Origin: Dissulfurispira thermophila
GTDB taxonomy: Bacteria; Nitrospirota; Thermodesulfovibrionia; Thermodesulfovibrionales; Dissulfurispiraceae
Length of the DNA stretch: 64,000 nucleotides
NCBI RefSeq assembly: GCF_014701235.1
Contig: NZ_AP022873.1
Location: 2,294,001 to 2,358,000, forward strand
Direction: 5' to 3'
Made by a program: the position numbers and the translations under genes
Notes under the pieces: model-generated
Told to the model about the DNA's origin: nothing
Seen by the model: the letters and a program-made list of their open reading frames with translations, nothing else
Database searches by the model: none
Shown: piece by piece, positions 1,655 through 54,888 of the stretch
How the letters are laid out: each line of letters opens with the position of its first letter
Position numbering within the stretch: the stretch's first letter is position 1

Positions 1655-3647
1655 AAAGCAGAAGACAGAAGTCAGAAGTCAGGAGTCAGGGGATAATATT
1701 TTTATCTTTTTTATAACTTTAAATGCTAAGAGGCTTGCTGAAAGTCTAAGGGGGCTTTATCATGATGCCCAGATCCTGAAATTTAAATCAGAAACTGTCT
1801 CTGAAGTATGGAACAAAGGCAGAAGTCTCATTTTCATAATGGCAACAGGCATTGTGGTAAGGACCATTGCCCCTCTTATAAAAGACAAAAAGACGGACCC
1901 GGCGGTTGTTGTCTTAGATGAGAAAGGGAAATTTGCTATAAGCCTTTTGAGCGGACATCTTGGTGGAGCAAATGAAATGGCAAGAGAGATTGCAGGGTTT
2001 CTCGGAGCCAAGGCAGTCATTACCACCTCATCGGATATAAATAACCTTCCCTCCATAGACCTCTGGGCAAAAGGAAATGGCCTGTTAATTGAGAATGAAG
2101 ACCTGTTACCACGGGTTAGCACTGATTTAATAAATAATGGGAGTTTAAAGGTTTATTCAGATATTGAGATAGAATTACCAGATGAGTTTAAAAAGGTATC
2201 AAGAACTGAAGAGGCAGATATTGTCATTACTAATTCTTCAGTCTTTAGCACCTTTACCCCAAAAAATCTCAGGATTTTTTGGGGACCTCGTCTTCAGCCT
2301 TCAGCCTTAATATTGAGACCGAAAAATCTTGTCCTTGGAATTGGCTGTAATAGCGGCACGACTGCAGAAGAGATAGAAGAGGCAGTCCGTTCAGTCCTTA
2401 ATGAAAACAACCTGTCATTTCTATCTATCCATTCAATTGCAACTATAGATATAAAGGCTAATGAAAAGGGTCTAAAGGAATTTTCAGAAAAATATGATTT
2501 CAAAATAAACATTTATACACCTGATGAGTTAAATGCAGTAGTCAGCCTTTATCCTTCATCATTCAGCCTTTCAGATGCAGCATTTAATGCAACAGGTGCA
2601 TATGCAGTTGCTGAGCCAGCAGCACTCCTTGGAGCGCAGGGGGGACTCTGTCCCTCCCGCGTGACCCCTGATAAAACAATGGGGAACCTTCGTCCTAAAC
2701 TCCTTGTGTCAAAACATAAGATCGGAAATGTGACAGTAGCAGTAGCAGAATACAGTGTTATAGATGGAGTGGAGAATGACAGATGGGGTCCCCAGAAAGT
2801 CGTAGAATTTCTGGGGAGGGTCGCATCAGAAATTAAGAGACCAAAGCTCTATATTGTCGGCACAGGGCCTGGAGGAATAGAACATATAACCCCCTATGCG
2901 CAGGATGCCATAAGAAAGTCAGATGTAATTGTTGGATATGGAACATATCTCGATCTGATAAAGGATTTAATTAAAGATAAAGAGGTTGTTTCAACTGGCA
3001 TGACGCAGGAGATTGATAGGTGCAAAAAAGCAATTGAACTTGCACTATCAGGAAAGACTGTATCTGTAATAAGCGGAGGCGACCCTGGTATATATGCAAT
3101 GGCAGGTCTGGTGTTTGAGGTCATTAAAGAGCGTGATGGGTTATCAGTAATCAGTAATCAGTTAAAAGATTTAAATCCATTACCCATCACCCATTACCCA
3201 TCACTTTCTGTTGAGGTTATCCCTGGCATATCTGCTCTGAATGCCTGTGCTGCAAGACTCGGTGCACCACTCATGCATGACTTTGCAGTAATAAGCCTTT
3301 CAGACAGGCTCACAGATTGGGATTTAATAGAGAAAAGACTCATCGCTGCAGCAATGTCAGACTTTGTAACGGTTATATATAATCCTAAGAGCATGGGAAG
3401 GCCTGGGCATATTAATAGAGCAAGGGATATATTCCTCAGACACAGAAGCACCGAAACACCTGTAGGCATAGTAAAGGGTGCAATGAGAGAAAATGAAAAA
3501 ATCATTATCACAAATCTAAGAGACATGCTTAATTATGACATTGATATGCAAACAACAGTAATCATAGGAAACTCCCAGACATTCATCTGGAACAATTACA
3601 TGATTACGCCGAGGGGATATGAGAAAAAGTTCGAGAATGCAACATAG
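1638..3647 (+). CDS. cbiGH: CbiG-CbiH fusion: cobalt-precorrin-5A hydrolase / cobalt-precorrin-3B C17-methyltransferase
   Basis: The N-terminal half is CbiG, which opens the delta-lactone and releases acetaldehyde; it shows LSGHLGGANEMAREIA, ITTSSDINNLPSIDLWA and a CbiG C-terminal domain (LVLGIGCNSGTTAEEI). The C-terminal half is CbiH, starting at LYIVGTGPGGIEHITPYA and containing GGDPGIYAMAG and VIPGISALNACAA. An ATG at 1620 would lengthen it by six residues, but 1638 has an AAGGA site eight bases upstream. Odd points are that the first residues and an insert before VEVIPG are encoded by 7-bp tandem repeats (1660-1694, 3143-3163, 3180-3204). CbiG and CbiH act close together in the pathway. 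Confidence 0.9.
   Translation: MDIESKKQKTEVRSQESGDNIFIFFITLNAKRLAESLRGLYHDAQILKFKSETVSEVWNKGRSLIFIMATGIVVRTIAPLIKDKKTDPAVVVLDEKGKFAISLLSGHLGGANEMAREIAGFLGAKAVITTSSDINNLPSIDLWAKGNGLLIENEDLLPRVSTDLINNGSLKVYSDIEIELPDEFKKVSRTEEADIVITNSSVFSTFTPKNLRIFWGPRLQPSALILRPKNLVLGIGCNSGTTAEEIEEAVRSVLNENNLSFLSIHSIATIDIKANEKGLKEFSEKYDFKINIYTPDELNAVVSLYPSSFSLSDAAFNATGAYAVAEPAALLGAQGGLCPSRVTPDKTMGNLRPKLLVSKHKIGNVTVAVAEYSVIDGVENDRWGPQKVVEFLGRVASEIKRPKLYIVGTGPGGIEHITPYAQDAIRKSDVIVGYGTYLDLIKDLIKDKEVVSTGMTQEIDRCKKAIELALSGKTVSVISGGDPGIYAMAGLVFEVIKERDGLSVISNQLKDLNPLPITHYPSLSVEVIPGISALNACAARLGAPLMHDFAVISLSDRLTDWDLIEKRLIAAAMSDFVTVIYNPKSMGRPGHINRARDIFLRHRSTETPVGIVKGAMRENEKIIITNLRDMLNYDIDMQTTVIIGNSQTFIWNNYMITPRGYEKKFENAT
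1660..1694 (+). repeat. Heptanucleotide array inside cbiG (five units)
   Basis: Five consecutive 7-bp units (AGAAGAC, AGAAGTC, AGAAGTC, AGGAGTC, AGGGGAT) lie at the 5' end of the reading frame. They encode a hydrophilic Lys/Glu/Arg/Gln-rich stretch between the start codon and the first beta strand of the CbiG domain. Confidence 0.85.
3143..3204 (+). repeat. Two heptanucleotide arrays inside the CbiH domain
   Basis: Three ATCAGT(A/T) units (3143-3163) and three and a half TTACCCA/TCACCCA units (3180-3204) lie close together. They encode an insert of roughly 20 residues between the GDPG-containing segment and VEVIPGISALNA. As far as I recall, CbiH proteins have only a few residues there. The reading frame is kept. 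Confidence 0.8.
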
Positions 3648-25594: not shown

Positions 25595-28012
25595 ATGTCG
25601 CCACAAAATACATTCATAAGCATAGAAGAAGAGATGAAGTCCAGCTACCTCGATTATGCAATGAGCGTAATTATCGGCAGGGCATTGCCAGAGGTAAGAG
25701 ATGGGCTGAAACCTGTACAAAGAAGAATATTGTATGCCATGTTCAGAGAAGGACTCCTTCCCGGTAAGAAGTATTCAAAATGTGCTGGTGTTGTTGGTGA
25801 AGTCTTAAAAAAATACCACCCGCACGGCGATACAGCAGTCTATGATGCACTCGTAAGGCTTGCCCAGGACTTTAACATGAGATACCCACTTGTAGATGGA
25901 CAGGGGAATTTTGGCTCCATAGATGGCGACCCCGCTGCTGCGTACAGATACACAGAGGCAAGGCTTGCAAAGATAGCAGAGGAACTCCTATCTGATATAG
26001 ACAAAAAAACAGTAGACTTCACTCCCAATTTTGATGAGACAACAGAAGAGCCTGTTGTCTTGCCAACAAAAATTCCAAATCTACTCATAAATGGCTCTGC
26101 TGGGATAGCCGTTGGGATGGCTACAAATATACCTCCACATAATCTTAAAGAGGTTGTAGATGGACTAATAATGCTTCTTGAAAATCCTGATATTACAATT
26201 AACGACCTGATGGCTGCAATTAAAGGTCCTGATTTTCCAACAGGTGCAATAATTTATGGTACTGGAGGAATAATTGAAGCCTATACTCACGGCAGGGGAT
26301 TAATAAAAGTAAGAGCAAAAGTAAGGATTGAGAGGGAAGCAAAAGGAGGAGACAGCATAATAATATCAGAACTTCCATATCAAGTAAATAAGGCAAGGCT
26401 TATAGAAAAAATAGCAGAACTTGTCCGTGAAAAGCGTATAGAAGGAATATCTGATATAAGAGATGAATCAGACAGAGACGGAATAAGGATAGTCATAGAA
26501 TTAAAACGAGGGGAGGTTCCGCAAATAATTCTGAATAATCTATATAAACACACCCAGATGGAATCCACATTTGGAATAATTATGTTAGCGCTTGTTAACG
26601 GACAACCCCATATACTTAATCTGAAAAGGATGCTCGGATATTTCTTACAACACAGAAGAGATGTTATTTTACGGAGAACAAGGTTTGAATTAAAAAAAGC
26701 AGAAGAAAAGGCACACATCCTTGAAGGACTGAAAATTGCCCTCGACCATTTAGACGCAATAATAACCCTCATAAGAAACTCAAAAACACCAGAGGAAGCA
26801 AAAAATGGCATGGTAACAAAATATCCTCTGACAGCAATTCAAGCACAGGCAATACTTGATATGAAACTCCAGAGATTAACAGGACTTGAAAGGGAAAAGA
26901 TTGTAAAAGACTATGAGGATACACTAAAGGAGATAGAGAGATTAAAAGAGATTTTAGGGAGTGAAAAACTCGTCTCAAAAATTATAAAAGATGAACTGTC
27001 AGAAATAAAAAACAAATATGGAGATGAAAGAAAAACAGAAATTTTAGCAGAGACGACAGAATTGACAATAGAAGACCTTATCACAGAAGAAGACATGGTC
27101 ATCACGCTTTCACACAATGGTTATATAAAAAGAAATCCACTCTCTATTTACAGAAGCCAGCGTCGCGGTGGTAAGGGTTTAACTGGAATGGAAACAAAAG
27201 AAGAGGACTATGTAGAGCAATTGTTTATAGGCTCTACGCATGACTATATGCTATTTTTCAGTAACATGGGAAGGCTTTACTGGAAAAAAATATACGAAAT
27301 ACCGGAAGCAGGAAGGACAGCAAAGGGCAAGGCACTTGTTAATCTGTTACCTATTACAGAAGGGGAAAGGATAACAACGGCACTGAATGTCAAAGACTTT
27401 AAAGAGGGATTCCTTGTTATGTTCACAAAAAATGGCATAGTCAAGAAAACAGCATTGCACGAATATAGCAATCCAAGGAGCAAAGGAATAATAGCTGTAA
27501 CTCTTGATGAAGGAGATGAACTTATTGCTGTAAAAAGGACAACAGGGAAAAATGATTTAATTATAGGCACAAAGAGCGGACTTGCTGCAAGGTTTAAGGA
27601 AGAAGATGTTAGGGATGTTGGAAGAACAGCCAGGGGTGTTATAGGAATAAGGCTGTCAAAGGGAGATGAAGTAGTGTCTGCTGATGTTATAGAAGAAAAC
27701 ACAAATCTTTTAACTGTTACAGAAAAAGGTCTCGGCAAAAGAACCAAGACAGAAGAATATCCTGTTCACGGTAGGGGAGGAAAAGGAGTTATATCCATAA
27801 AACTCACAGAAAAAAGCGGCAACGCAGTAGGACTCCTTCAGGTAAAGGACGAAGATGAAATAGTCTTGATAACAAATTCAGGGAAACTAATAAGAACAAA
27901 AGCTAACAGCATCTCTGTTCAGGGCAGAAATACACAAGGGGTCAAACTCATGGATTTAGAGGCTGATGACAGGATTGTAAGTGTAGGCAGGGTAGTAGAG
28001 GAAGATCAATAA
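25595..28012 (+). CDS. gyrA: DNA gyrase subunit A
   Basis: An 805-residue type IIA topoisomerase subunit. Seen are [43 protein letters not shown] (quinolone region), the catalytic tyrosine in [11 protein letters not shown], and a C-terminal beta-pinwheel with the GyrA box QRRGGKG near residue 520. The box distinguishes gyrase from topoisomerase IV. gyrB is not in the window. Confidence 0.96.
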
Positions 28013-28026
28013 TCCCAATAAGATAA

Positions 28027-28096
28027 ATGGAAGATGGAAGATGCAAGATGGAAGATAGAAGATGCAAGATGGAAGATGCAAGATGGAAGATGGAAA
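28027..28096 (+). repeat. Intergenic heptanucleotide array ATGGAAG (ten units)
   Basis: Ten head-to-tail units of ATGGAAG/ATGCAAG/ATAGAAG run from 28027 to 28096. Most units contain an ATG preceded by GGAAG-like purines, in all three frames in turn. The array runs into the start of a small membrane-protein gene. Confidence 0.95.
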
Positions 28097-28281
28097 AAAA
28101 TGACACCTTAATATTTATATTTATACTCGGCTTGTTTGGACTTAACTGGCCATTTCTGGAGATTTTTCATGTTAATATAACTGAATACTTATTTGCATTT
28201 TGGCTTATTTTTATAATTCTAATAGCACTTGTAGTCTCCAGGGCAGAGGACAAAAAAGATAAATTTAGAGCAAATGGGTAA
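28090..28281 (+). CDS. Small two-helix membrane protein upstream of the sensor kinase
   Basis: A 63-residue protein from the ATG at 28090. Two hydrophobic segments are seen: TLIFIFILGLFGLNWPFLEIF and ITEYLFAFWLIFIILIALVV, followed by a charged tail (SRAEDKKDKF). The frame is open upstream to 28027 through the repeat array, which would add 21 charged residues; I take the last array ATG as the start. It sits just before a symporter-type histidine kinase, which often has such a small membrane partner. Confidence 0.65.
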   Translation: MEKNDTLIFIFILGLFGLNWPFLEIFHVNITEYLFAFWLIFIILIALVVSRAEDKKDKFRANG

Positions 28282-28319
28282 ATGGGTATATGAGTTTTTA
28301 CCCATAACCTGTTTTTAAA

Positions 28320-31300
28320 ATGTTTGCATCGTATAATCTTTTCTTCATAGTCCTGTGTTATCTCCTGCTTCTCTTTGCGGTTGCATATTATGCAGAAAAA
28401 AAAGAGAAAGCTGGAAAAAGCATTGTCAACAACCCCTATATTTACTCCCTTTCACTTGCGGTCTACTGCACCTCATGGACATTCTATGGGAGTGTTGGAA
28501 AGGCTGCAACATCAGGACTCTCCTTTTTGACTACATATCTGGGTCCTACACTCATAGCTGCTATATGGCTCGTTGTGTTAAAAAAAGTTGTAAAGATAGC
28601 AAAAACAAACAGGATTACAACCATATCTGACTTCATAGGTTCAAGATACGGCAAGTCTCTCTCCCTCTCAGCTATTGTAACAATAGTTGCAGTTGTAGGA
28701 ATCGCTCCATATCTTGGATTACAAATAAAGGCAATCATAAGCACATTCACAATAATATCAGGTGAGGCAAAAGGTAGTTCTGCTGCTGGGCTGTTCATTA
28801 CATTAATACTCGGCATTTTTGCAATCATGTTCGGTGCCAGACGACTCGACTCATCAGAAAGGCACGGAGGTCTTGTCTTTGCCATTGCATTTGAGTCTAT
28901 TGTAAAACTAATTGCATTTATCATCGTAGGCATTTTTGTTACTTATGGGTTGTTTAAAGGATTTGGTGACATATTCGACAAGATCAAGGATTCTGAGTAC
29001 TCTGTTTTGCTCTTCCTCGGAACAGGAACAGGAACAGATTATTCTGAATGGTTTGCCCTCCTTTTTCTCTCAATGATGGCTATCATGTTTCTGCCGAGAC
29101 AATTCCAGATGGCTGTTGTTGAAAACTATGACGAATCCCACATAACAAAAGCTGCTTGGCTATTTCCACTATATCTTCTTCTGATGAACATATTTGTATT
29201 GCCCATTGCTTTTGGGGGCTTACTCCTTGGAGGTGCAGGGAAAGACGCAGATTATTTTGTCCTTACCCTACCCCTGAATTACGGAAAACAATATCTTTCT
29301 CTCTTGGCTTTTATAGGTGGTTTTTCTGCTGCAACGGGTATGATAATTGTTGAGGCATTAGCATTGAGCACAATGGTGATGAATAGCATAATCACGCCTG
29401 CTCTTCTAAATTTCCATAATGCCCCCAAATTTCCTATTATTATTTTGAATATAAAGAGACTTATAATCCTTGGCATTATTTTTCTCGGCTACTTTTTTGC
29501 CATATCAATTGGGGAATTTTATAGTCTCGTGGATATGGGTCTCAAGTCCTTTGAGGCTGTAACACTATTTGCACCTGCTTTTCTTCTTGGACTCTATTGG
29601 AAAAAAGGCACAAAGGCAGGTGCAATAACAGGCATTACTGTAGGCTTTGTAGTATGGTTCTACACTCTCATAATACCTGCTCTCATTAAGGCAGGAATTA
29701 TAAAAAATATAGGGCTTATTGGATCCATGATTGATTCTAAAATGCTTAATCCCATAAGTCTCTTTGGAATAAAAGGGCTTGGAAAGTGGGGAAATTCCTT
29801 GTTTTGGAGCATGTTGTTTAATTTGATGTTTTATATCGGCATATCTATCTTCACAAAGCAATCAAAGGATGAGGAAATACAATCCCTCATATTTGTAGAA
29901 TCTTATGAGAAAGCAAAAACCCTCGCACATAGTAGCTCATATACTGTCTCTGATATAGAAGATATACTCGCCCAATATTTGGGTAAGCATGAAGCAAAGG
30001 AAGCAATACGAATCTTTTTGCTGAAAAAGAAAAGAAAACAAGATGAGCTAACATCAAAGGAACTCTTTGAGTTAAGAAATGAAGCAGAAAAAATACTATC
30101 AGGAGCGATTGGCTCATCTATAGCAGCTATCATATTCGAAAACAAACTCGTTCTCACAGAAAAGGAAAGAGGTGAACTTTCCCAGTCTATAAAGCACATA
30201 ACTGAAAATCTAAGGCTCTCCCGCCAGGAACTGGCAGATGCAAACAGGGAACTCTCATATCTAAAAGAGTTTAGCGAGAATATCATAGAAAGTGCACCCA
30301 TAGGCATTACCACTGTTGATTCATTGCTAAGGGTTAGATACTGGAACAAAGAAATGGAAATAATTACAGGAATTAAAAAATCAGATGCATTTAACAACTC
30401 CCTAATCCTTCTGCTTCCGTGGATTCCTGGCAATGCCCTTTTAGAAAACGAACCAAAAGAAATTGTATTCCATACGCCATCGCATCAGATATTTAAGATA
30501 AATATCAGTCCGTTTAAAGATCCATCAGGTTATCTTGCTGGCGGATATATAGTCATTCTTGAAGACATAACAGAAAAGAAAAAAATGGAGGAACAACTAT
30601 TTCAGACATCTAAATTAGCCAGCATAGGCAAATTAACGGCTGGTATTTCACATGAGATCGGCAATCCACTTGCATCAATATCTTCTCTTGTGCAAGAACT
30701 CATGTTGCTAAATTTAGACCATACAGCCACTATTCAGTCTTCAATAACTTTAGGAAAAGAATTTGACAATAGCGAAATAGACTTCATAAATGAATCTCTA
30801 AAGACTATAAATAGCCATATAGAGCGCATTGCAAGAATAGTCCGCAGTCTTGGAGATTTCGCAAGAATATCATCAACAGAAAAAACCGCTTCAAATATAT
30901 CAGAAATATTAGATCGCACAATCAACTTAGTAAAATACGACAAAAGGTTCAAAAATATACACCTCGACATAGAAATAGGAGATATCCCAAGATTGATAGT
31001 TAATCCTGACCAAATACAACAGGTATTCCTGAACCTGATTCTTAATGCACTTGATGCTATGCCAGAAGGCGGAAGGTTGTACATCAAAATAAAAAAAGCA
31101 GGGAATTTTATAGAGCTTATTTTCCATGACACTGGTGTCGGAATAGACGAATCTGTAATGGATAAGATATTCGACCCATTCTTTACCACAAAGCCATTTG
31201 GGAAAGGCACGGGATTAGGCTTAAGCATCTGCTATGGTATAATCAGAGAGCACAACGGCACAATTACTGCAAAAAGCAAAAAGGGAGAGGGAACAACTTT

Positions 31301-31322
31301 TGTCATAAAGTTGCCAATATAA
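28320..31322 (+). CDS. Sodium:solute-symporter-type sensor histidine kinase (CbrA-like)
   Basis: A 1000-residue hybrid. The first 500 residues form about 13 transmembrane helices of the SSS transporter family (YSLSLAVYCTSWTFYGSVGKAA, MAIMFLPRQFQMAVVEN). A coiled-coil linker and a PAS domain (IIESAPIGITTVDSLLRVRYWN) follow. The HisKA box is SHEIGNPLASISSL near 776, and the ATPase domain has NLILNALDAMPEGG, DTGVGI and GKGTGLGLSI. The input domain may sense or transport a small organic solute. It is five bases from its response regulator. Confidence 0.93.
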   Translation: MFASYNLFFIVLCYLLLLFAVAYYAEKKEKAGKSIVNNPYIYSLSLAVYCTSWTFYGSVGKAATSGLSFLTTYLGPTLIAAIWLVVLKKVVKIAKTNRITTISDFIGSRYGKSLSLSAIVTIVAVVGIAPYLGLQIKAIISTFTIISGEAKGSSAAGLFITLILGIFAIMFGARRLDSSERHGGLVFAIAFESIVKLIAFIIVGIFVTYGLFKGFGDIFDKIKDSEYSVLLFLGTGTGTDYSEWFALLFLSMMAIMFLPRQFQMAVVENYDESHITKAAWLFPLYLLLMNIFVLPIAFGGLLLGGAGKDADYFVLTLPLNYGKQYLSLLAFIGGFSAATGMIIVEALALSTMVMNSIITPALLNFHNAPKFPIIILNIKRLIILGIIFLGYFFAISIGEFYSLVDMGLKSFEAVTLFAPAFLLGLYWKKGTKAGAITGITVGFVVWFYTLIIPALIKAGIIKNIGLIGSMIDSKMLNPISLFGIKGLGKWGNSLFWSMLFNLMFYIGISIFTKQSKDEEIQSLIFVESYEKAKTLAHSSSYTVSDIEDILAQYLGKHEAKEAIRIFLLKKKRKQDELTSKELFELRNEAEKILSGAIGSSIAAIIFENKLVLTEKERGELSQSIKHITENLRLSRQELADANRELSYLKEFSENIIESAPIGITTVDSLLRVRYWNKEMEIITGIKKSDAFNNSLILLLPWIPGNALLENEPKEIVFHTPSHQIFKINISPFKDPSGYLAGGYIVILEDITEKKKMEEQLFQTSKLASIGKLTAGISHEIGNPLASISSLVQELMLLNLDHTATIQSSITLGKEFDNSEIDFINESLKTINSHIERIARIVRSLGDFARISSTEKTASNISEILDRTINLVKYDKRFKNIHLDIEIGDIPRLIVNPDQIQQVFLNLILNALDAMPEGGRLYIKIKKAGNFIELIFHDTGVGIDESVMDKIFDPFFTTKPFGKGTGLGLSICYGIIREHNGTITAKSKKGEGTTFVIKLPI

Positions 31323-31326
31323 TCTA

Positions 31327-32673
31327 ATGGCTGAAAGAATACTAATAGTTGAAGACGAAGAGACCTTATGTGCCTCTTTAAAGAGGGTATTTCTAAGAGA
31401 TGGTTATGAAGTTGAAACAGCAGATAATGCAGAGTTAGCATTAGAAATCCTCGATAAAGATATATATGATATAGTAATCACAGACATCATTCTGCCGGGA
31501 ATCAATGGCATCGAACTCCTCAAAAGAATAAAAGAAAAATTCCCTGAGCATGTTGTAATAATAATCACAGCCTATGCCTCCTTAGAAACTGCTGTTGAAG
31601 CCCTCAGAGCAGGTGCTTACGATTATGTGGTAAAACCAATCATACATGAAGAGATAAAACAGATTGTAAAAAATGCACTTAGGCAAAAGTCTCTTCATGT
31701 AGAAAACATCTTGCTAAAGAAACAAATAAAAAGACATTATGACTTCAGTAAAATAATAGGTGAAAGCAATATAATGCAGCAAATAATCAATGAGGTTAAA
31801 AAAATTTCAGATGCGAGAAGCAATGTGCTTTTACTTGGAGAGACAGGCACAGGAAAAGAACTCATTGCAAGGGCAATACACTTTAACAGCAATAGGGCAG
31901 ATAAACCCTTTCTCCCAATAAATTGTAGTGCCATTCCTGAAAATCTTCTTGAATCAGAGCTCTTTGGTCATGTAAAGGGTGCCTTTACAGGTGCGATAAC
32001 ATCTAAAAAAGGGCTTTTCGAGGAGGCAAATGGAGGCACTATATTTCTTGACGAGATAGGAGATCTAAGCCCAAGTCTTCAATCAAAACTCCTAAGAGCG
32101 ATTGAGGACCACGAGATAAGGCCAGTAGGCGGAACACAGGGTATTAAGGTCAATATAAGATTTATATCTGCTACAAATAAAAATATAGAAGATGCTGTGA
32201 AATACGGTAGTTTCAGAGAAGACCTCTTTTATCGGATAAATGTAATTACGATAAAACTTCCTCCTTTGAGAGAAAGGAGGGAAGACATAGATCTACTGGC
32301 AAAATATTTTTTGCAGAAATATTCCAGTGAACTCGGCAAGCCCATTAATAGTATAGATAAAGAAGCACTGGAAATGCTCAAGACATATCACTGGCCCGGC
32401 AATATCAGAGAACTGCAAAACATAATAGAAAGGGCTATTCTTATAGCAGAAAATGGAATTATAAAGGCAGAGCATTTACCCGATGGCATAAAAGCAAAGG
32501 ACCCATTCACACTTTCAGCTATTAATGATAAACTCTCTATAGAAGACTACACAAAGAAATTTATACAGAGATACCAAAATGAATTTAATGAGCAGCAACT
32601 TGCAGATATGCTCGGGATCACGAGAAAGTCACTCTGGGAAAAGAGGAAGAAATGGGGAATAACGAGGGAATAA
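31327..32673 (+). CDS. NtrC-family sigma-54-dependent response regulator
   Basis: A 448-residue regulator. The receiver has the phospho-acceptor Asp53 (DIVITDIILPG) and Lys in DYVVKP. The AAA+ domain shows Walker A GETGTGKE, the sigma-54 contact GAFTGA, and Walker B GGTIFLDEIGDL. A Fis-type helix-turn-helix ends the protein (QQLADMLGITRKSLWEKRKKW). It forms a two-component pair with the preceding kinase, and its 3' end overlaps the formate dehydrogenase start by 22 bases, so this operon may be a target. Confidence 0.95.
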   Translation: MAERILIVEDEETLCASLKRVFLRDGYEVETADNAELALEILDKDIYDIVITDIILPGINGIELLKRIKEKFPEHVVIIITAYASLETAVEALRAGAYDYVVKPIIHEEIKQIVKNALRQKSLHVENILLKKQIKRHYDFSKIIGESNIMQQIINEVKKISDARSNVLLLGETGTGKELIARAIHFNSNRADKPFLPINCSAIPENLLESELFGHVKGAFTGAITSKKGLFEEANGGTIFLDEIGDLSPSLQSKLLRAIEDHEIRPVGGTQGIKVNIRFISATNKNIEDAVKYGSFREDLFYRINVITIKLPPLRERREDIDLLAKYFLQKYSSELGKPINSIDKEALEMLKTYHWPGNIRELQNIIERAILIAENGIIKAEHLPDGIKAKDPFTLSAINDKLSIEDYTKKFIQRYQNEFNEQQLADMLGITRKSLWEKRKKWGITRE

Positions 32674-36905: not shown

Positions 36906-36969
36906 AAATAAGAGATGCTTCACTTCGAGATTCTTCAGTCGCTTCGCTCCTTCAGAATGACAGATAGTG
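36906..36969. repeat. 64-bp dispersed repeat, copy 1
   Basis: This stretch (containing GAGATTCTTCAGTCGCTTCG and CAGAATGACAGATAG) recurs at 54634-54697 with a single mismatch. Related inverted words (GTCATTCCTTCG, ATCATTCTGAT) continue to about 37110, making a long imperfect palindrome. Confidence 0.9.
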
Positions 36970-37180
36970 TGTTTGTCATTCCTTCGTTTCACTCAGGATG
37001 GCGTCTGAGCCCTTCGCTTTTTATCATTCTGATCGTAGCGAAAAATCTCGTAGTTCCGCTCAGGGCAGGCTCCGCGAAGTAATCTAATAAGATTGCCACG
37101 CACTTATTACTTCTATCGGCAATTTTAGGTGATATATGGCTTATAGTCCATCACTTTATTTTATGTTATAATGACATCAA
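36970..37180. other. Repeat-derived gap without recognisable gene
   Basis: After the 64-bp repeat, 36970-37110 holds inverse-orientation relatives of it (for example TGTCATTCCTTCG and CTCAGGATGGCG). From 37111 to 37180 I see no gene or signal. Confidence 0.5.
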
Positions 37181-37306
37181 ATAGAAGATGGAAAATGGAA
37201 GATGGAAGATGGGAAATAGAAGATGGAAAATGGAAGATGGAAGATGGGAAATGGAAGATGGGAAATGGAAAATGGAAAATGGAAGATGGAAGATGGGAAA
37301 TGGAGT
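37181..37306 (+). repeat. Intergenic heptanucleotide array ATGGAAG/ATGGGAA (18 units)
   Basis: Eighteen consecutive 7-bp units, the longest array in the window. Most units carry an ATG. A larger period is visible: ATAGAAG, ATGGAAA, ATGGAAG, ATGGAAG, ATGGGAA occurs twice in a row, showing block duplication. Confidence 0.95.
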
Positions 37307-54633: not shown

Positions 54634-54697
54634 AAATAAGAGATGCTTCACTTCGAGATTCTTCAGTAGCTTCGCTCCTTCAGAATGACAGATAGTG
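54634..54697. repeat. 64-bp dispersed repeat, copy 2
   Basis: It differs from copy 1 at 36906-36969 in one base. It lies in the 331-base gap between the secretion ATPase and the cyclase. Confidence 0.9.
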
Positions 54698-54720: not shown

Positions 54721-54846
54721 TAACGTCTTCGGTGATTCAAAGTTGAAGGTTTAAAGTTTAAGATTTGAGATTTAAAATTCAAGATTGGATTTTATCTTCA
54801 GCTATTTGAATTTTGAATTTTAAATCTTGAATCGCCGAAGACGTAA
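54721..54846. repeat. Palindromic 126-bp element with CGTCTTCGG ends, filled with heptads
   Basis: CGTCTTCGGTGATTCAA (54724-54740) and TTGAATCGCCGAAGACG (54827-54843) are inverted repeats with one mismatch. Between them lie A/T-rich 7-bp words (TTTAAAG, TTTAAGA, TTTGAGA, TTTGAAT). Single ends with CGCCGAAGGCG occur at 46956, 47205 and 63736. This element and the 64-bp repeat fill most of 54552-54882; I see no gene there. Confidence 0.75.
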
Positions 54847-54888
54847 GAGGGAATGCTCATTAACTCATATATCATATGAACTTTGAGT

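What the first reader, a model, noticed from the sequence alone, without database searches (positions are those of the whole stretch)
28027..28281. Repeat array that supplies start codons and ribosome-like sites to a small membrane protein
Each ATGGAAG unit holds an ATG preceded by purines (GGAAG), and successive units shift frame. Gain or loss of one unit changes which ATG is in frame with the downstream helix protein. This could act as a phase-variable translation switch.
Basis: inference. Interest (0 to 1): 0.55.

Follow-up and report, generated by a model that had tools for sequence, protein, structure and literature searches.

The report
Seven-base repeat swallowing a start codon
A run of about ten imperfect seven-base repeats, one of many such runs in this bacterium's genome, sits exactly where a small membrane-protein gene begins, so that the gene's start codon is the repeat's last unit; it is real and unusual, but it cannot work as the simple on/off switch that was proposed.

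Summary
The array is real: ten ATGGAAG-type units at 28027-28095. The rest of the stated range is the ORF. It lies between gyrA and a 63-residue helical membrane protein, followed by an SLC5-PAS-histidine kinase and an NtrC-type regulator: the layout of Pseudomonas cbrX-cbrA-cbrB. Homologues fix the true start at ATG 28090, the last unit. That ATG stays in frame whatever the unit number, so gain or loss of a unit cannot switch the gene off; it only changes upstream in-frame ATGs (N-terminal extensions) and out-of-frame decoys. The array is absent at the same place in all 25 other loci with the small gene, including two same-genus species where the gene overlaps or nearly abuts gyrA. Best reading: a recent, species-specific heptad array that replaced stop/start coupling to gyrA by an unstructured purine-rich leader. 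Phase variation is untested and unlikely here (longest perfect tract 17 bp). The wider lead is stronger: this genus carries many period-7/8 arrays in junctions and inside genes. One CobJ loop holds such arrays, with different words, in 9 of 18 species compared.

The parts
28027..28095 (+). Heptad array, ten ATGGAAG-type units (last one ATGGAAA, running into the gene)
   Evidence: TRF; pattern counts; unit list
28090..28281 (+). CbrX-like small membrane protein gene, 63 aa, conserved start ATG 28090 in the last array unit
   Evidence: Homologues; structure model
28027..28281 (+). Longest ORF from the first array ATG (84 aa); residues 1-21 coded by the array, no counterpart in homologues
28083..28103 (+). 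Out-of-frame mini-ORF MEDGKK with the best-spaced GGAAG site, overlapping the true start
28076..28111 (+). Out-of-frame mini-ORF of 11 codons overlapping the true start
28272..28295 (+). Short period-8 array AAATGGGT x2 + ATATGAGT; the small gene's stop codon (28279-28281) lies in it; ACCCAT at 28300-28305 could pair with it
   Evidence: lag 8, score 11, 0 of 300 shuffles; sequence
25595..28012 (+). gyrA, upstream neighbour
   Evidence: NF004043, TIGR01063 above cut-off
28320..31322 (+). SLC5 - PAS - histidine kinase (CbrA-like)
31327..32673 (+). NtrC-type sigma-54 response regulator (CbrB-like)
37181..37303 (+). Second ATGGAAG array of the window, intergenic; shares 50 identical flanking bases with an array at 998 kb of the genome

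Best explanation
The array is one of a genome-wide class of short period-7 (and period-8) tandem arrays. In this species only, one such array lies between gyrA and a cbrX-like gene, with the gene's own ATG as its final unit. In the seven other gyrA-linked relatives the small gene's start overlaps gyrA's end or lies 6 nt behind it, so translation there is probably coupled to gyrA. Here that coupling is replaced by a 77-nt gap filled by an unstructured, purine-rich leader with weak GGAAG sites and several ATGs. Ribosomes most likely start mainly at ATG 28090, some at in-frame ATG 28048 or 28069 (14 or 7 extra residues), and some are lost at out-of-frame ATGs such as 28083. The output is a steady, perhaps lowered, level of the small protein and, by coupling as in Pseudomonas, of the kinase. 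Shown: the array, its absence in relatives, the conserved start, the operon order, low predicted RNA structure. Inferred: loss of coupling, start choice, effect on the kinase.
For: Absent at the 5' side of the small gene in the other 25 of 26 loci, with gyrA and small gene overlapping or 6 nt apart in the seven other gyrA-linked ones (read). M1 invariant among 18 aligned homologues and equal to 28090; in G002 a stop codon lies two codons before the only ATG. RNA of 27990-28130 folds less well than 200 of 200 shuffles, z +2.31. Period-7 arrays abundant in this genus. A second gene (23S_rRNA_IVP) likewise starts in the last unit of an ATGGAAT array.
Against: No expression data. The conserved start 28090 has no well-spaced Shine-Dalgarno-like site, whereas 28048 (in frame) and 28083 (out of frame) have one, so the main start might be elsewhere. 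Whether gyrA and the small gene are one transcript is not shown; the coupling in relatives is inferred from overlap only.
Confidence: 0.6

Rival explanations
1. Phase-variable switch or rheostat: slippage changes the unit number, the first array ATG (14 nt behind gyrA's stop) goes in or out of frame, and the level of small protein and kinase changes.
For: First ATG is in frame only when the units upstream of 28090 are a multiple of three, as now with nine. Two paralogous arrays of the same word with 50 of 50 identical adjoining flank bases match in only 5 of 17 units, so units do turn over. NeuO is a proven heptad switch (PMC3046976, passages).
Against: ATG 28090 is in frame at every unit number. 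Tract imperfect, 17 bp perfect at most, while the NeuO and hmw1A cases have a single repeated heptanucleotide unit. The gene is a regulator's small partner, not a surface antigen. No population data.
Confidence: 0.1
2. Neutral debris: the array spreads or expands by itself, and here landed in a tolerant junction without effect.
For: Species-specific (1 of 26 loci); arrays of unrelated words at many sites, about half of them inside ORFs.
Against: It puts five out-of-frame ATGs and about 63 nt between two genes that overlap or nearly abut in relatives, which should alter initiation to some degree (inference).
Confidence: 0.2
3. Landing site for an RNA-binding regulator such as CsrA or ribosomal protein S1, as MacGregor proposed for TAACTGA arrays: six ANGGA motifs in an open leader cover the start codon.
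For: Six A-N-GGA motifs in 28013-28110; the genome has one CsrA gene above the family cut-off; leader poorly structured. That ANGGA is the CsrA core motif is recalled, not from a call.
Against: The motif follows from the word itself and is also present in the intergenic array at 37 kb. CsrA sites usually sit in hairpin loops (recalled), and this leader has none.
Confidence: 0.1

Closest known systems
TAACTGA heptamer arrays of marine Beggiatoaceae (MacGregor 2015, PMC4679880; abstract, part 1 of section 5 and sections 10, 15, 24 read)
   Same: Seven-base direct repeats, most in front of start codons, mixed with variant units; species-specific; a role in translation proposed
   Different: Different word; TAACTGA has stops in all frames and ends before the start codon, whereas this word contains the start codon and is open; here many words occur in one genome
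NeuO poly-psi heptanucleotide switch of E. coli K1 (PMC3046976, passages)
   Same: Heptanucleotide array at the 5' end of a gene, reading as a repeated heptapeptide in all frames
   Different: NeuO's array lies after the start codon, so unit number sets on/off; here it lies before and up to the start codon, so it cannot
Heptad and octad elements of Geobacter metallireducens (PMC2700814, passages) and GGGNATC repeats of Xanthomonas/Nostoc (PMC4692102, passages)
   Same: Short tandem arrays of period 7 or 8, between and inside genes, partly as inverted pairs
   Different: There each family has one word spread over many sites; here the word differs between sites and between species at one site
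CbrX-CbrA-CbrB of Pseudomonas (PMC6591292, PMC13022988, passages and section 5 of the former)
   Same: Small helical membrane protein of about 58 aa just upstream of an SLC5-PAS-histidine kinase, then an NtrC-type regulator
   Different: Behind gyrA in 8 of 26 loci here; sequence kinship of the small protein with CbrX not shown; ligand unknown; PMC8871633 (abstract) calls CbrAB unique to Pseudomonadaceae

Membership tests
Phase-variable translational contingency locus (NeuO type) | Unit number decides whether the full-length protein can be read | tested here: not met
   ATG 28090 in frame for 0-12 units
Phase-variable translational contingency locus (NeuO type) | Long perfect repeat prone to slippage | tested here: not met
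   Longest perfect period-7 tract 17 bp; unit list
Phase-variable translational contingency locus (NeuO type) | Unit number varies within the species | not testable with these tools
   One genome per species held; no reads
Bacterial heptad tandem arrays (kind, not a homologous family) | Period-7 direct repeats well above chance | tested here: met
TAACTGA repeats | Unit sequence TAACTGA | tested here: not met
   Unit is ATGGAAG
TAACTGA repeats | Located at or just before start codons | tested here: met
   For this array and one more of the same word; the sampled arrays as a whole: 16 of 46 intergenic, 7 of 46 near a possible start
CbrXAB | SLC5 transporter domain joined to PAS and histidine kinase | tested here: met
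CbrXAB | Small membrane peptide encoded directly upstream of the kinase | tested here: met
   26 of 28 full-length loci; helical model
CbrXAB | Small peptide homologous in sequence to CbrX | tested here: inconclusive
   No Pfam/NCBIfam family; PDB profile search found no CbrX chain; CbrX letters not at hand
CbrXAB | Translational coupling of small gene to kinase | not testable with these tools
   Close spacing or overlap in many relatives; 38 nt in the window

The most novel reading that the evidence does not exclude
These lineages have an active process that writes tandem arrays of fixed period (7 or 8 nt) but free word, often as two inverted arms, into permissive places such as operon junctions and protein loops, and rewrites them between species. 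At gyrA-cbrX it took in a start codon and so rewired translation of a transceptor-kinase operon, with a frame-dependent output graded by unit number.
Probability: 0.15. Interest if true: 0.75.

Novelty: new variant of a known kind. Interest (0 to 1): 0.4.

Why it matters
Heptamer arrays are over-represented in many bacteria but hardly studied (PMC4692102, passages read), and how they arise is open. Here is a case that can be dated: sister species without the array, one species with it, at a junction whose earlier arrangement can be read. It shows that an open, ATG-bearing heptad can take over a start codon without breaking the gene, and it gives a simple reporter test. The same genus offers an orthologous CobJ loop where the period is kept while the word changes, which makes the origin of such arrays testable by comparison.

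Tried and rejected
On/off phase switch: rejected on frame logic. Array-coded N-terminus as a conserved domain: rejected, none of the 17 homologues aligned with the window's protein has it. Array as a terminator, attenuator hairpin or promoter: not supported; the leader is less structured than shuffles and the promoter scan of 27700-28700 found no more than chance (2 found, 2.6 expected; the two terminator-like sites, 0.6 expected, are on the other strand inside gyrA). Array as half of an inverted pair: no complementary arm seen beside it in the sequence, unlike about a quarter of the arrays (22 of 92 at score 10 or more against 29 of 552 with swapped flanks). Pfam, NCBIfam and a PDB profile search did not name the small protein. 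ATGGAAG as a word shared by relatives: rejected, only 4 of the 175 other genomes searched in the order have a match, one each. Finding the Pseudomonas CbrX sequence for comparison: not found in what I searched.

Weak points of my own tests. The lag scans and ORF classes rest on crude ORF calls and thresholds that I chose; two of the 20 sampled stretches (990001, 2274001) were chosen because they hold known ATGGAAG arrays. In one search my rule preferred a start about 19 codons before the NWP motif. In some searches I aligned 18 and 15 of the 26 small proteins; I left out the rows with TTG starts. In one search, 7 of 25 CobJ loci had no motif match and were dropped. In one search the window-wide comparison used a grid that missed the array in question.

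Full report
WHAT IS THERE. The window lies in a single-contig genome of 2,370,875 bases. The best named relatives found by the kinase are mostly labelled Nitrospirota; the closest (87% identity) is a Thermodesulfovibrionales MAG. At 28027-28095 stand ten seven-base units: ATGGAAG, ATGGAAG, ATGCAAG, ATGGAAG, ATAGAAG, ATGCAAG, ATGGAAG, ATGCAAG, ATGGAAG, ATGGAAA. The two-unit pattern with one mismatch is found 14 times in the window against 0.06 expected.

THE GENES. Upstream is gyrA (25595-28012). Downstream are a small ORF, a 1000-residue protein with sodium:solute symporter, PAS, HisKA and HATPase domains (28320-31322), and a sigma-54-type response regulator (31327-32673). This is the layout of Pseudomonas cbrX-cbrA-cbrB (PMC6591292 section 5 and passages, PMC13022988 passages). 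PDB chain 10ed_A ('histidine kinase', 606 aa) matches residues 6-608; that it is the CbrA construct is my inference.

WHERE THE SMALL PROTEIN STARTS. A search of 60 genomes gave 28 loci with a full-length kinase, the window's included; 26 of 28 have a small ORF with an NWP or GWP motif before the kinase. Aligned (18 of 26), they share M1, W20, P21, W38 and I42, and M1 is window ATG 28090. In G002, the closest relative, a stop codon lies two codons before the only ATG, which fixes the start there without any rule of mine. The structure model is helical (3-18, 21-25, 30-62; mean pLDDT 75.4, pTM 0.45). So the gene's start codon is the last array unit, and the 21 array-coded residues before it have no counterpart.

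WHAT THE ARRAY CHANGED. In 8 of the 26 loci the small gene follows gyrA (my reading). In six of the seven others the start overlaps gyrA's end (L013, L019, L021, L022, L032, L037) and in one (L012) it follows after 6 nt. In the window the gap is 77 nt and mostly filled by the array. No other locus of the 26 has a period-7 array at the 5' side. The array is therefore most simply a derived, species-specific gain. The RNA of 27990-28130 folds less well than all 200 shuffles (z +2.31): an open purine-rich leader. A fourth genus member, G003, has lost most of the small gene and the kinase behind gyrA, so the operon is dispensable.

THE SWITCH IDEA. Counting frames for 0 to 12 units in front of it, ATG 28090 is always in frame; other in-frame ATGs rise from 0 to 4, out-of-frame ones from 0 to 7, and the very first ATG is in frame only when the units are a multiple of three. 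At present there are four in-frame and five out-of-frame array ATGs. The GGAAG of each unit abuts the next ATG, so only the ATG one unit further gets normal spacing; for 28090 that site reads GCAAG, for in-frame 28048 and out-of-frame 28041, 28062 and 28083 it reads GGAAG. Hence unit changes could tune, not toggle. NeuO, the known heptad switch, has its array after the start codon (PMC3046976, passages). The tract here is imperfect, at most 17 bp perfect. For instability speaks that two other arrays of this word share 50 identical flanking bases yet match in only 5 of 17 units.

A WIDER CLASS. In 464 kb sampled, TRF gives 45 period-7 rows, and period 7 is not among the periods listed for five local shuffles. 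A lag scan gives 16 segments at lag 7 in 400 kb, 0 at lags 4-6, 3 at lag 8; two same-genus genomes give 6 and 16 per 80 kb; of eight more distant genomes three give 2, 1 and 1 and five give 0; the shuffled control gives 0. Words differ widely. Of 46 arrays (periods 7 and 8) in this genome's sample, 16 are intergenic (8% of random points), 21 inside ORFs (77%), 7 near a possible start and 2 near a stop. A second gene, of the 23S_rRNA_IVP family, also starts in the last unit of an ATGGAAT array at 2282034-2282063 of the genome. At one loop of CobJ, 18 orthologues of the family could be compared (7 of 25 loci had no motif match): 9 carry arrays of period 7 or 8, each 0 of 500 shuffles, with different words, and 9 of the 18 fold better than all but at most 4 of 200 shuffles. 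Precedents: Geobacter heptads and octads, GGGNATC in Xanthomonas and Nostoc, TAACTGA in Beggiatoaceae. My paper searches for heptamer repeats in Nitrospirota showed none in their listings (listings only).

VERDICT. A real, species-specific heptad array has taken in the start codon of a CbrX-like gene. Most likely it replaces gyrA coupling by an open leader with several start sites; as an on/off switch it fails on frame logic; as a graded effect, or as a CsrA-type binding site, it is untested. The array belongs to a known kind, in a variant whose word contains the start codon. The strongest lead for others is the arrays that keep period and place but not their word.

Noticed in passing
window 3126-3209 (CobJ loop) and loci L202-L226: Orthologous loop of CobJ holds in-frame tandem arrays of period 7 or 8 with different words in 9 of 18 species compared, mostly as hairpin arms, and no array in the others.
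   Followed up: partly
L076 8034-8063 (genome 2282034-2282063): Second gene, a 23S_rRNA_IVP-family protein, whose start codon is the last unit of an ATGGAAT-type array; the gene in front appears to end inside the same array.
   Followed up: partly
genome 2279435-2331304: Six of the seven ATGGAAG-like arrays seen lie within 52 kb, one of them inside a cobalamin-type gene in frame (2286853-2286951), one between two genes before a GGAGG-led start (2279439); nearly all point one way (48 forward, 2 reverse matches).
   Followed up: partly
window 37130-37180 and genome 997958-998007: Two arrays of this word share an identical 50-base left flank with a TATAAT-like box but different right flanks, as if copied from one side.
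   Followed up: partly
window 36910-36969 and 54638-54697: Nearly identical dispersed repeat (AAGAGATGCTTCACTTCGAGATTCTTCAG...CAGAATGACAGATAGTG) beside array sites in two places.
   Followed up: no
window 54730-54860: Two period-7 arrays facing each other, framed by an inverted repeat (CGTCTTCGG...CCGAAGACG).
   Followed up: no
loci L011-L038: A small-protein / SLC5-kinase / NtrC-type regulator cassette resembling cbrXAB is widespread in this order, although an abstract (PMC8871633) calls CbrAB unique to Pseudomonadaceae.
   Followed up: partly
L054 (G003), just after gyrA: In a same-genus species the small gene and most of the kinase are deleted; a short stretch like the kinase's middle follows gyrA directly.
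   Followed up: no
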